Shown: positions 11,618-18,725 of the stretch, piece by piece
Layout: each line of letters begins with the position of its first letter
Numbering within the stretch: the stretch's first letter is position 1
Assembly (NCBI RefSeq): GCF_041154505.1
Contig: NZ_AP028672.1
Coordinates: 1,315,001-1,379,000, forward strand
Origin: Acidovorax sp. A79
GTDB lineage: Bacteria > Pseudomonadota > Gammaproteobacteria > Burkholderiales > Burkholderiaceae_C
DNA: 64,000 nt
Reading direction: 5' to 3'
Notes under the pieces: model-generated
What the model saw: the letters and a program-made list of their open reading frames with translations, nothing else
Databases searched by the model: none
What the model was told of the DNA's origin: nothing
Position numbers and translations under genes: made by a program

Positions 11618-12737
11618 TTTCATCGACCTCAAGGCCCAGCAGGCACGCATCAAAAACCAGATCGACGCAGCCATTTCCCGGGTATTGGCCCACGGCCAAT
11701 ATATCCTGGGGCCGGAGGTTGCGGAACTGGAGAAACAACTGGCCGCCTACACCGGCGCCAAGCACTGCATTACCGTCGCCAATGGCACCGACGCCCTGCA
11801 GATCGCCCAGATGGCCCTGGGCATAGGCCCGGGCGATGAGGTCATCACGCCCGGCTTCACCTACATTGCCACCGCAGAAACCGTGGCCCTGCTGCGCGCC
11901 AAGCCCGTCTACGTGGACATTGACCCGCGTACCTACAACTTGAATCCAGCCCTGCTGGAAGCCGCCATCACTCCGCGTACCAGGGCCATCATCCCCGTCA
12001 GCCTTTACGGCCAATGTGCAGACTACGACGCCATCAATGCCATCGCCCAAAAACACGGCATTACCGTCATTGAAGACGCTGCCCAGAGCTTTGGCGCCAC
12101 CTACAAAGGCCGCAAAAGCTGCAACCTGACCCCAATCGCCTGCACCAGCTTCTTCCCCAGCAAACCGCTGGGCTGTTATGGGGACGGCGGAGCCATCTTC
12201 ACCAACGACGATGAACTGGCCAAGGTCATGCGTCAGATCGCCCGCCACGGCCAAGATCGCCGCTACCACCACATCCGCGTGGGCGTGAACAGCCGGCTGG
12301 ACACACTGCAAGCCGCCATTCTGCTGGCCAAGCTGGCTATCCTGGACGAGGAAATCGCCGCGCGCCAGCAAGTTGCCGAGTGCTACACCACCCTACTCCC
12401 TCGTCCGCTCGCGGGAGAAGGAGTAGATGTGAGTGCGTTCGCTATCACTGCACCCCATATCGCTCCCCACAACACCAGTGCCTGGGCACAATACACCGTG
12501 CAAGTGCCCCACCGCGAACAAGTGCAAGACCAACTCAAGCAAATGGGCATCCCCACTGTGGTGCATTACCCCCTCCCGTTGAACCAACAACCCGCCGTGG
12601 CTGATGTCGGCACCTTGCTGCCCATGGGTGATGCGGCAGCACAGAGGGTGCTGAGTTTGCCCATACACCCATATCTGGATGTAAATAACCTCCACCGCAT
12701 CGTGCAAGCCATTGTTGATTTTTCTCCAGAAAATTAG
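11610..12737 (+). CDS. wbpE: UDP-3-keto-GlcNAcA aminotransferase (WbpE type, DegT family)
   Basis: The 375-residue PLP aminotransferase has VANGTDALQIA for cofactor phosphate binding, VIEDAAQSFGA with the PLP-contacting Asp, and Lys185 in SFFPSKPLGCYG as the Schiff-base lysine. SKPLG and the WbpB/WbpD neighbours favour C3 amination of the 3-keto intermediate. An in-frame palindrome at 12393-12426 encodes an extra stretch around residues 262-272 (RPLAGEG) between two conserved blocks, in a loop that is variable in the family, so activity is probably kept. Its TAG stop lies in the left arm of an 11-bp inverted repeat that marks the edge of the lower-GC cassette. Confidence 0.92.
   Translation: MVDFIDLKAQQARIKNQIDAAISRVLAHGQYILGPEVAELEKQLAAYTGAKHCITVANGTDALQIAQMALGIGPGDEVITPGFTYIATAETVALLRAKPVYVDIDPRTYNLNPALLEAAITPRTRAIIPVSLYGQCADYDAINAIAQKHGITVIEDAAQSFGATYKGRKSCNLTPIACTSFFPSKPLGCYGDGGAIFTNDDELAKVMRQIARHGQDRRYHHIRVGVNSRLDTLQAAILLAKLAILDEEIAARQQVAECYTTLLPRPLAGEGVDVSAFAITAPHIAPHNTSAWAQYTVQVPHREQVQDQLKQMGIPTVVHYPLPLNQQPAVADVGTLLPMGDAAAQRVLSLPIHPYLDVNNLHRIVQAIVDFSPEN
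12393..12426 (+). repeat. Short palindromic element inserted in frame in wbpE
   Basis: CTACTCC (12393-12399) pairs with GGAGTAG (12420-12426), with a further CTCGTCCGCTCGCGGGAG core. The encoded RPLAGEG resembles the peptide left by the well known CCCTC-CCGC-GGGAG intergenic palindromes of many proteobacteria. It is unlike the dispersed family repeat elsewhere in this window. Confidence 0.55.
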
Positions 12738-12830
12738 GTCTTAGCCCTCTGCAAAAGAAACAACAAAGAGTTGAAAGCGAGTAAAAAGCAAGCGCATGCG
12801 TAGTAGTGGTGATAATTCAACCTAATTTTC
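12729..12830. repeat. 11-bp perfect inverted repeat spanning the wbpE stop
   Basis: GAAAATTAGGT at 12729-12739 and ACCTAATTTTC at 12820-12830 are perfect inverted copies separated by 80 nt. The left arm contains the wbpE stop codon. The motif TTAGCCC also occurs just inside the left arm and just after the right arm. The stretch from 12738 to 12930 holds no gene and is visibly AT-rich. It could be a long-loop hairpin or the scar of an insertion; no transposase or integrase is nearby. Confidence 0.6.
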
Positions 12831-12930
12831 CATTAGCCCGATCTCTGGCAAGACCAAGAGCGCAAGTACCTAACAAAGAATGTGCAAATCAAACTCCAGA
12901 GGCAATTCACTGGCTCCGTAGAAACAAAAA

Positions 12931-17064: not shown

Positions 17065-18460
17065 CGGCAGTATTTACGCCGCTGGCACGATCGCGTCACG
17101 TGGGATCGCTTTACTCACTGTGCCTGTCTACACACGCTTCCTTGATCCTGAGAACTTTGGTGCACTGGATCTAATCCTCACTTCGGGAGTCCTAGTGACG
17201 CTGGTAGTTGCCCTGGAAGTCGGCCAAGGCCTAGCCCGTGAGTGGGCCACCTTGCCAAACCCAGAAGCAAAGCGCAGGATGGCTGGCACCGCACTGTGCT
17301 TCACGACATTGATGCATGGTGCATTTCTGGCGCTAGCTCTGTCGTTTTCTGAGTCACTGTCGGAGATTCTGTACGACACCCCAGACCGTTCAAGCTTGGT
17401 GCAAGCAGGTCTAGCTTACATCGCCTGGAACGCACTGTATCTTCAGCTACAAGCCCAGTTCCGTTGGTCGATGCGACCGCTGAGTTACGTCTCAACTAGC
17501 ATTTTGTATAGCCTGTTGACATTGGTACTTGGGTACAGCCTCGGTCGTAAGTGGGGCGCTACCGGTGTGTTGGCAGGCCAGATGTTGGCGGCCGCTAGCG
17601 CGGTTGGGGTGAGCATCTGGGCTTTGCGAACCCAGTTCGATTGGGCGCTCGATTTGAAACATTTGCGCAGCATGCTTGCCTACTCACTGCCGCTGGCGCC
17701 TGCGGGCCTGGCAACCTTCACCAGCTTCCATATCAATCGTTTTATTCTGAACGCATATGCCAATCTGGACCAGGTGGGATACTACGCCGTCGCGTCAAGA
17801 GCAGCAGCCGTTACGGCGCTGCTGACCGTTGGCGTTCAGACTGCTCTGACCCCACTTGTCTACCGCTACCATGCGGCACCCGCAACACCGAGACAGCTAG
17901 TTCGCCTGCTCGAAGGTTTCATCACGGTAGCACTGGTACTGAGCCTCGGCTTGAGCTTGTATGCACAAGAGCTCATCTTGTGGATTTCGGGACCAGCATA
18001 CCTGCCAAGTTCTGTGCTGGTTGCTTGGTTGGTGCCAGCAACGCTGCTGTCGCAGATGTACGTATTCTTCCCAGGCTTAGCTCTTGCGCGTCGCACAATG
18101 ACCCAGTTATCAATCACCGTGCTGACCGGTCTTGTAGCGCTCAGCCTCAACCTCATCCTTATCCCAATTGCACAAGGCCAAGGCGCGGCAATATCCACTC
18201 TGATCGCGGCGGCGCTCTATCTCGCGGTTTGGGTCCAAGCAAGTCAACAAAGCTACCGACTACCCATCCGTCTGGGACGAGTCGTTCTCGCATTATTGGC
18301 TTACTTGGTTTTTCTCGGCATGGGTTTCATCATGAAGTTCATTGAACTAGACCGTTCGTTGCTCCTTGTTTTTAACTTTGGCTTGCTGATCAGCATGTAC
18401 ATCGTTTGTAATTTGATGGGACTATTTCGATATCGATCCAACGCCGAGCCCCGTAGTTGA
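17042..18460 (+). CDS. wzx: Oligosaccharide flippase, Wzx/MATE-like polysaccharide exporter
   Basis: The 472-residue protein has about twelve to fourteen hydrophobic helices. Its N terminus, SIYAAGTIASRGIALLTVPVYTRFLDPENFGALDL, is the pattern shared by Wzx and PST exporters (a glycine-rich first helix followed by YTR-L-P-FG). Wzx flips undecaprenyl-linked repeat units across the inner membrane. The start at 17042 overlaps the preceding glycosyltransferase. It is the last complete gene of the AT-richer cassette. No Wzy polymerase, chain-length regulator or outer membrane exporter is visible in this window, so these must lie elsewhere or the product is a single-unit glycan. Confidence 0.85.
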   Translation: MLKQLARDGSIYAAGTIASRGIALLTVPVYTRFLDPENFGALDLILTSGVLVTLVVALEVGQGLAREWATLPNPEAKRRMAGTALCFTTLMHGAFLALALSFSESLSEILYDTPDRSSLVQAGLAYIAWNALYLQLQAQFRWSMRPLSYVSTSILYSLLTLVLGYSLGRKWGATGVLAGQMLAAASAVGVSIWALRTQFDWALDLKHLRSMLAYSLPLAPAGLATFTSFHINRFILNAYANLDQVGYYAVASRAAAVTALLTVGVQTALTPLVYRYHAAPATPRQLVRLLEGFITVALVLSLGLSLYAQELILWISGPAYLPSSVLVAWLVPATLLSQMYVFFPGLALARRTMTQLSITVLTGLVALSLNLILIPIAQGQGAAISTLIAAALYLAVWVQASQQSYRLPIRLGRVVLALLAYLVFLGMGFIMKFIELDRSLLLVFNFGLLISMYIVCNLMGLFRYRSNAEPRS

Positions 18461-18476
18461 TGTCTCGTAGTTCACC

Positions 18477-18725
18477 ATGAAAAAAATTCTCCCCAGCCGG
18501 AGCGGCTGCCCACAATTCATCAAGAAAAGCGTGGCATTGCAGGGAAATACCTACATGGAGTCGGGCTGGAATCGCTTGGCCCCGTCGCTTTCACCGAGGG
18601 CTGTCGGCATGGCAGTGCTTCAGGTGGTGGGTACTCAGGTCTTAGACATTCGCCCTTATGGCGAGGGGGATGCGGATGCCGCATCGCGCATCGTGCAGCA
18701 CTTGTACGCGGACCTGTGTAAGTGA
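18477..18725 (+). pseudogene. Probable 3' remnant of a UDP-GlcNAc 2-epimerase gene (wbpI-like)
   Basis: The 82-codon frame after wzx ends in VLDIRPYGEGDADAASRIV followed by a short helical tail. That resembles the common end of UDP-GlcNAc 2-epimerases (N-P-Y-G-D-G, then A or S, then R-I-V). The N-terminal half (from MKKILPSRSG) has no similarity I can see. The stop shares GTGA with the next gene, as expected for the natural end of a coupled upstream gene. WbpI would be the last enzyme of the wbpB-D-E pathway and is missing as a complete gene here. The alternative is a genuine small protein of unknown function. Confidence 0.45.

What the first reader, a model, noticed from the sequence alone, without database searches (positions are those of the whole stretch)
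12729..18725. Cassette replacement inside the polysaccharide locus
An 11-bp perfect inverted repeat spans the wbpE stop at the left edge. Between 12.74 and 18.46 kb the genes are visibly AT-richer: the line 13081-13140 has 23 G/C of 60, against 37 of 60 at 2401-2460. At the right edge lies an apparent 3' end of a UDP-GlcNAc 2-epimerase gene. This fits an incoming five-gene cassette (epimerase, aminotransferase, acyltransferase, glycosyltransferase, flippase) that removed most of a wbpI-type gene and changed the surface glycan.
Basis: partly seen in the sequence, partly recalled or inferred. Interest (0 to 1): 0.75.

Follow-up and report, generated by a model that had tools for sequence, protein, structure and literature searches.

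The report
Surface-sugar locus with deleted epimerase
This stretch of a bacterial surface-sugar gene cluster lost the enzyme for one rare sugar, and its neighbouring sugar-transfer gene appears to have been swapped for a matching version, so the cell's surface chemistry was probably changed; this is a new variant of an ordinary kind of locus.

Summary
The AT-rich five-gene block (SDR, DegT, acyltransferase, GT, Wzx; 12931-18460) and a dead wbpI are real. No intact WbpI-family gene was found in this genome or in sister genome G017, which shares block and deletion. G048 (another genus) has the same block before a nearly full-length wbpI, and the block there is as diverged as the rest of the locus, so it is not a recent arrival relative to that split. 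What looks exchanged is GT4 and the methyltransferase (18722 to about 20370): in trees they group with loci lacking wbpI, while genes on both sides group with the wbpI-bearing sisters. Best reading: a donor-sugar switch in which the C2 epimerase was lost and its partner glycosyltransferase replaced, UDP-GlcNAc3NAcA now being used as such and, by the five-gene block, probably turned into a triacetamido-pentose. Sugar identities are inferred, not shown. New variant of a known kind.

The parts
6654..8777 (+). PglF/CapD-like UDP-GlcNAc 4,6-dehydratase (long ORF; the part alignable to relatives begins about codon 53-74)
   Evidence: PF02719 E 1.1e-115; PDB 5bju WlaL E 1.1e-83
8771..10075 (+). WbpA-type UDP-sugar 6-dehydrogenase
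   Evidence: PF03721/PF00984/PF03720
10080..11027 (+). WbpB-type 3-dehydrogenase
   Evidence: PF01408/PF02894; gene order
11024..11617 (+). WbpD-type N-acetyltransferase
   Evidence: hexapeptide repeats PF00132; order wbpD-wbpE kept in relatives
11610..12737 (+). WbpE-type 3-aminotransferase
   Evidence: PF01041 E 8.6e-118; 72-88% identical in G017, G003, G012, G006, G033
12729..12830 (.). 11-bp inverted repeat, arms 12729-12739 and 12820-12830; judged chance
   Evidence: arms not seen in G017
12931..13920 (+). SDR, predicted NAD-dependent C4-oxidising decarboxylase acting on UDP-GlcNAc3NAcA
   Evidence: PDB 8vr2 E 1.6e-144, then UDP-glucuronate decarboxylases and 6zl6 (epimerase domain protein) at E about 1e-37; directly downstream of wbpE in 15 of 80 loci
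13935..15071 (+). DegT/PseC-like 4-aminotransferase (ORF may begin at TTG 13917)
   Evidence: PF01041; PDB 9bgp E 5e-110, 8vr3/8vr5 E 1.4e-105
15081..15713 (+). Left-handed beta-helix acyltransferase, predicted 4-N-acetyltransferase
   Evidence: PDB 8vr6 E 6.7e-19 best hit
15727..17064 (+). GT-B fold glycosyltransferase, no Pfam family hit
   Evidence: AlphaFold pLDDT 89.3; Foldseek best match BshA-type GT4 enzyme E 3e-8, TM 0.53
17042..18460 (+). Wzx-type flippase
   Evidence: PF01943/PF13440
18477..18725 (+). wbpI pseudogene: 82-codon open remnant with both termini, internal deletion of about 285 codons; stop overlaps the GT4 start
   Evidence: dN/dS 0.60 (0.32-1.15) against G017
18722..19936 (+). 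GT4 glycosyltransferase of the type found in loci without wbpI (exchanged)
   Evidence: PF13579/PF13692; trees
19933..20628 (+). Methyltransferase, exchanged with GT4; right edge of exchange about 20369
   Evidence: PF13649; tree; blastn
20625..21779 (+). DegT aminotransferase (PglE-like role inferred), not exchanged
   Evidence: PF01041; tree
21751..22392 (+). PglC-like initiating phosphoglycosyl transferase, not exchanged
   Evidence: PF02397 E 3e-57; tree

Best explanation
A short-glycan or O-antigen locus between a LON-domain gene and lysS makes UDP-GlcNAc3NAcA with WbpA, B, E and D. In the common ancestor of this species and G017, wbpI (which would turn that sugar into UDP-ManNAc3NAcA) lost its middle by an internal deletion, and the next genes, GT4 and a methyltransferase, were exchanged by recombination for the version found in loci that have no wbpI. 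GT4 would now transfer GlcNAc3NAcA instead of ManNAc3NAcA. The five-gene block was already there and has its own use for the precursor: the SDR oxidises C4 and decarboxylates UDP-GlcNAc3NAcA, DegT aminates C4, the acyltransferase acetylates it, giving UDP-2,3,4-triacetamido-2,3,4-trideoxy-pentose (L-arabinose type); the GT adds it and Wzx flips the product. Shown by sequence: the deletion, its sharing with G017, no WbpI-family match in either genome, and the conflict between the GT4/MT trees and their neighbours' trees. Inferred: every sugar identity, the donor of GT4, and the order of events.
For: No TIGR00236 or PF02350 match in the 5.87-Mb genome (controls ring in 11 of 14 in both), no TIGR00236 match in G017; present at the locus in G003, G006 and G048. 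G017 has the same five genes (87-96% aa identity) and the same two-ended remnant. Remnant dN/dS 0.60 (bootstrap 0.32-1.15) at dS 0.42, against 0.03-0.17 in 12 neighbouring genes. GT4 tree of 36: the 3 loci with wbpI directly upstream form one clade (100/99); G000 and G017 sit in a clade of loci without wbpI in view (100/99 and 100/100); 0 of 500 shuffles as low. MT agrees (100/100), while WbpD, WbpE, DegT-20625 and PglC put G000, G017, G003 and G048 together (97-100). DNA similarity to G003 ends at 12681, is patchy (68-69%) within 18556-19250 and strong again from 20369. Branch function: 8vr2, 8vr3/8vr5 and 8vr6 as best or near-best solved relatives of the three enzymes; WbpD/E/B homologues in 33 of 80 SDR loci, SDR directly after wbpE in 15 of 80, while WbpD occurs in 38 of 370 genomes of the class. 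UDP-GlcNAc3NAcA is the WbpI substrate (PMC10622841, passages); triacetamido-L-arabinose is a known O-antigen sugar of P. cryohalolentis (PMC8040287, passages).
Against: The GT4-wbpI link rests on three wbpI-bearing loci, and adjacent genes travel together, so linkage alone could make that clade; only the G000/G017 case separates them. Lacking wbpI is not special: G012, G033 and G046 also have wbpD/E and no TIGR00236 match. G056, G052 and G058, whose GT4 resembles this one, have no wbpI in the locus but do have 1, 2 and 2 TIGR00236 genes elsewhere, so their GT4 need not use the gluco sugar. That SDR loci avoid wbpI is not supported: 3 of 33 SDR loci with wbpD/E/B carry wbpI, against 5 of 37 wbpD loci drawn without regard to SDR (one locus, L065 and L149, seems to be in both sets). 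L052, L054, L057 and L129 keep block and wbpI together; L052 and L054 show no wbpD/E in 9-10 kb upstream. 47 of 80 SDR loci show no WbpD/E/B above the thresholds, many on short contigs. The PDB tool gives no organism or substrate for the 8vr entries; a search with the 8vr2 sequence named Vibrio, Pseudoalteromonas and Idiomarina, not Psychrobacter, so their pathway is my recollection. 6zl6, called an epimerase, is as close to the SDR as the decarboxylases. The acyltransferase match is weak, and 9bgp, not 8vr3, is the closest aminotransferase.
Confidence: 0.45

Rival explanations
1. One reading: the five-gene cassette arrived from outside and its insertion removed most of wbpI in one event.
For: Lower GC and GC3 of the block than of the wbp genes; SDR found in only 3 of 99 relatives, own genome included; G003 and G006 have other content there.
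Against: wbpI keeps its own start and first about 25 codons after wzx and lost only its middle; block plus nearly full wbpI in G048; block as diverged from G048 as the rest of the locus; same order before a full-length wbpI in four other loci.
Confidence: 0.12
2. Block, remnant, GT4 and MT (about 12.7-20.4 kb) were imported together from a lineage in which wbpI was already dead.
For: Similarity to G003 is broken across 12682-20369 apart from weak patches.
Against: Against G048 the block aligns at 77% like the rest of the locus while GT4 and MT are at 54% aa, so the two parts have different histories in this comparison; but G048 could itself be a recipient.
Confidence: 0.25
3. SDR-DegT-acyltransferase act on UDP-GlcNAc (4,6-dehydratase route) and make a diacetamido-trideoxyhexose; wbpI loss is unrelated drift.
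For: NCBIfam best matches of the SDR are dTDP-glucose 4,6-dehydratase and LegB, both far below cut-off, and of DegT PseC, below cut-off. Other wbpD/E genomes also lack wbpI.
Against: The locus already has a PglF-like dehydratase and another DegT; repeated placement of the SDR directly after wbpE.
Confidence: 0.2
4. The 82-codon remnant ORF is kept because its translation is coupled to GT4 (overlapping stop and start) or as a small protein.
For: Open in both G000 and G017, overlap kept; dN/dS 0.60 is below 1.
Against: Interval includes 1 (0.32-1.15); lengths differ by two codons; only 80 codons compared, so openness is weak evidence.
Confidence: 0.15

Closest known systems
Wbp pathway to UDP-ManNAc3NAcA (WbpA-B-E-D-I)
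   Same: WbpA, B, D, E present in order; remnant of WbpI in the place where G003 keeps an intact copy
   Different: The last enzyme is deleted and no other homologue was found in the genome, so the path should stop at UDP-GlcNAc3NAcA
Enzymes of PDB 8vr2, 8vr3/8vr5, 8vr6 (recalled, not confirmed by a call: the 2,3,4-triacetamido-2,3,4-trideoxy-L-arabinose branch of Psychrobacter cryohalolentis)
   Same: Same three enzyme classes; SDR strongly similar over 325 residues; located downstream of wbpE
   Different: Acyltransferase only distantly related; substrate not tested here
Cassette exchange in O-antigen loci
   Same: Conserved ends (wbpA-E; DegT-PglC) around a middle that differs between relatives
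   Different: The part in conflict with its neighbours is GT4-MT beside a decayed epimerase, and the five genes are older than the G000-G017 split
Bordetella wlb (band A) locus (recalled)
   Same: Order wbpE-wbpI-GT4 type, methyltransferase, initiating transferase; no Wzy_C-family gene in the window
   Different: wbpI is a remnant here; five additional genes including Wzx

Membership tests
Wbp pathway to UDP-ManNAc3NAcA | WbpA, WbpB, WbpE, WbpD present together | tested here: met
   (families and order; activities not tested)
Wbp pathway to UDP-ManNAc3NAcA | Intact C2 epimerase WbpI | tested here: not met
   No TIGR00236 or PF02350 match in the genome; remnant only
Triacetamido-pentose branch (8vr set) | SDR of the 8vr2 family | tested here: met
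   E 1.6e-144 over 325 residues
Triacetamido-pentose branch (8vr set) | Partner DegT and acyltransferase of the same families | tested here: inconclusive
   DegT E 1.4e-105 but 9bgp closer; acyltransferase E 6.7e-19
Triacetamido-pentose branch (8vr set) | Activity on UDP-GlcNAc3NAcA | not testable with these tools
   needs enzymes and substrate
Wzx/Wzy O-antigen locus | Wzx flippase in the locus | tested here: met
   PF01943
Wzx/Wzy O-antigen locus | Wzy polymerase in the locus | tested here: not met
   PF04932 finds three genes in the genome, none in the window; other Wzy families not tested

The most novel reading that the evidence does not exclude
A natural donor-sugar switch: deletion of the C2 epimerase and replacement of the adjacent glycosyltransferase by its wbpI-less allele happened in one lineage, so that two clades of one GT4 family discriminate UDP-ManNAc3NAcA from its C2 epimer UDP-GlcNAc3NAcA, while the five-gene block drains the same precursor into a triacetamido-pentose.
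Probability: 0.4. Interest if true: 0.6.

Novelty: new variant of a known kind. Interest (0 to 1): 0.42.

Why it matters
If true, it gives a traceable case in which a surface glycan changed by losing one enzyme and swapping its partner glycosyltransferase, with the broken enzyme still in place as a marker. The two GT4 clades become a ready comparison for finding the residues that tell C2 epimers apart, and the SDR-DegT-acyltransferase triplet, seen across phyla, can be read as a branch from UDP-GlcNAc3NAcA.

Tried and rejected
Independent decay of wbpI in G048: rejected. G048 shows frame breaks in wbpI and wbpE (also stops inside), but other conserved genes of that genome are split too (for example the counterparts of window 31268-32242 and 48508-49878), so sequencing error is likelier; G048 is treated as block plus probably intact wbpI.

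General exclusion of wbpI by the SDR block: tested and not supported.

Inverted repeat as an insertion footprint: rejected as near chance.

Retained coding function of the remnant: not excluded.

Literature: ten answered searches. bear on wbpI loss and the two sugars; judged by their listings, neither shows a paper on wbpI loss coupled to a GT swap (29 and 1 papers, 12 and 1 listed). The paper behind the 8vr entries was not found. Papers seen: PMC8040287 and PMC10622841 by passages, PMC7281560 by passages that lie in its reference list; all others as search listings.

First-attempt errors: one search read missing files and gave no hits (redone); the remnant row was in the wrong frame and is replaced.

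Full report
What was checked. The locus lies between a LON-domain gene (6079-6798) and a lysS-like tRNA synthetase gene (22480-24024). Gene content: PglF-like dehydratase, WbpA, WbpB, WbpD, WbpE, then SDR, DegT, hexapeptide acyltransferase, a glycosyltransferase without Pfam match, Wzx, a small ORF, GT4, methyltransferase, DegT, PglC-like transferase. The unmatched glycosyltransferase models as a GT-B enzyme (pLDDT 89.3) with GT4-family enzymes as best structural matches (E 3e-8, TM 0.53).

The observation. The inverted repeat is real but near chance. 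The GC dip is real but nested: 0.66-0.67 outside, 0.578 in the wbp block, 0.544 in the five genes, 0.594 in GT4-MT; third-position GC separates the five genes (0.53-0.59) from wbpA-E (0.65-0.72).

The epimerase. The ORF 18477-18725 has both ends: 11 of its first 21 residues equal the start of the intact WbpI of G003, and it is the only one of 6459 start codons in the window to reach that number; its last 50-odd residues match the WbpI C-terminus. The middle, about 285 of 364 codons, is missing. G017, another species of the genus, has the same two-ended remnant, though its N-terminal part is less alike (7 of 21). Neither genome has a TIGR00236 match and this one has no PF02350 match; the control searches find 11 of 14 genomes. 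Between the two genomes the remnant has dN/dS 0.60 (bootstrap 0.32-1.15) at dS 0.42; 12 neighbouring genes have 0.03-0.17. The simplest reading is that the gene was lost before the two species parted and has evolved with little constraint since.

Sister loci. G003 (same genus): wbpE, then an unrelated gene set, then intact wbpI directly followed by GT4. G006 (same genus): wbpE and at once an intact wbpI. G048 (another genus of the family): the same five genes, then a nearly full-length wbpI, then GT4. G048 has frame breaks in wbpE and near the wbpI 3' end, but also in other conserved genes, so I do not count it as an independent loss. G056, G052, G058 and G681: wbpD-wbpE, other genes, GT4, no wbpI within the fetched stretch; but G056, G052 and G058 have 1, 2 and 2 TIGR00236 genes elsewhere, and G012, G033 and G046, with wbpD/E, have none at all. 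So a wbp locus without wbpI is common, and what is unusual here is the remnant. The SDR occurs in 3 of 99 relatives searched, own genome included.

Where the exchange lies. DNA similarity to G003 is continuous to 12681, then weak patches at 18556-18840 and 19096-19250 (68-69%), then strong from 20369 (85%). Against G048 it is 75% for 5547-12681, 77% for 12931-18296, 66% for 18556-19294, and 78% for 20369-22575; farther left, outside the locus, 84-92%. The five genes are thus no more diverged from G048 than the rest of the locus, while GT4 and MT are at 54% protein identity to G048. Trees agree. WbpD, WbpE, DegT-20625 and PglC unite G000, G017, G003 and G048 (97-100 on both measures). MT and GT4 instead unite G003 with G048 and place G000/G017 with G056, G052 and G058 (100/100 and 100/99). 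In a larger tree of 36 GT4 proteins (30 from the 399 genomes of the order searched, three of these already in hand, and 6 more), the three loci with wbpI directly upstream (G003, G048 and G636 of another family) are one clade (100/99), G000/G017 lie in a clade otherwise without wbpI, and 0 of 500 label shuffles are as clustered. The label none (31 rows) means no wbpI seen: three pieces have under 2 kb upstream (L202, L203, L215), and 10 of the 31, these three included, show no WbpD/E either.

How it may work. WbpI converts UDP-GlcNAc3NAcA to UDP-ManNAc3NAcA (PMC10622841, passages). With WbpI gone the precursor stays in gluco form. A GT4 that needed the manno form would be idle; the one now present belongs to the type found in loci without wbpI. 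This makes a paired change plausible: epimerase lost, transferase replaced. Linkage is the main rival, since wbpI and GT4 are neighbours and would move together; only one event here separates them.

The five-gene block. The SDR's best solved relative is 8vr2 (E 1.6e-144), followed by UDP-glucuronate decarboxylases and, equally, 6zl6, an epimerase-domain protein (E about 1e-37); DegT matches 9bgp and 8vr3/8vr5; the acyltransferase matches 8vr6 best but weakly. The numbering suggests one study; I recall it as the branch to 2,3,4-triacetamido-2,3,4-trideoxy-L-arabinose, a sugar of the P. cryohalolentis O-antigen (PMC8040287, passages), but no call confirmed organism or substrate, and a search with the 8vr2 sequence named Vibrio, Pseudoalteromonas and Idiomarina, not Psychrobacter. 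Context supports the substrate: of 80 SDR loci kept from genome contigs (a capped, not random, list), 33 carry WbpD, WbpE or WbpB homologues, 67 have a DegT within 1.5 kb, and in 15 the SDR directly follows wbpE (same strand, under 800 bp), among them Pseudomonas, Marinobacterium, Vibrio, Rubrivivax and two chloroflexote bins; WbpD occurs in 38 of 370 genomes of the class. Forty-seven of the 80 show none of the three. A tempting general rule, that this block and wbpI exclude each other, failed: 3 of 33 against 5 of 37.

Verdict. My odds: internal deletion and genome-wide absence 0.95; exchange of GT4-MT 0.85; triacetamido-pentose product 0.6; paired donor switch 0.4; the whole reading 0.45 as the best single account.

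Noticed in passing
12396-12425: A short palindromic repeat-like stretch (CTCCCTCGTCCGCTCGCGGGAGAAGG) sits inside wbpE without breaking it; G048 has a GCGGGAGA-bearing stretch at about the same place, next to its frame break.
   Followed up: partly
window 6000-22400: A Wzx but no Wzy_C-family gene in the locus; the three PF04932 genes of the genome are elsewhere, so the product may be a short unpolymerised glycan.
   Followed up: partly
L046, L175, L176: Genome G048 has several conserved genes split over two frames, which points to assembly or sequencing errors in a single-contig genome.
   Followed up: partly
12931-13920 family; L050-L129: The SDR family is very conserved and widespread (7903 of 7999 scored proteins at E 1e-90 or better), from Proteobacteria to Bacteroidota, Chloroflexota and a Methanobrevibacter bin; in Bacteroidota the DegT gene often precedes it.
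   Followed up: partly
15727-17064: Glycosyltransferase family with no Pfam match that lies beside Wzx and the SDR triplet in several phyla.
   Followed up: partly
L052, L054: Block plus full-length wbpI but no wbpD/E in the 9-10 kb upstream; what wbpI does there is unclear.
   Followed up: no
G012, G033, G046: Relatives with wbpD/E but no WbpI-family gene at all; their loci were not studied further.
   Followed up: no
30500-35000: A second AT-richer stretch (GC 0.601) in the window.
   Followed up: no
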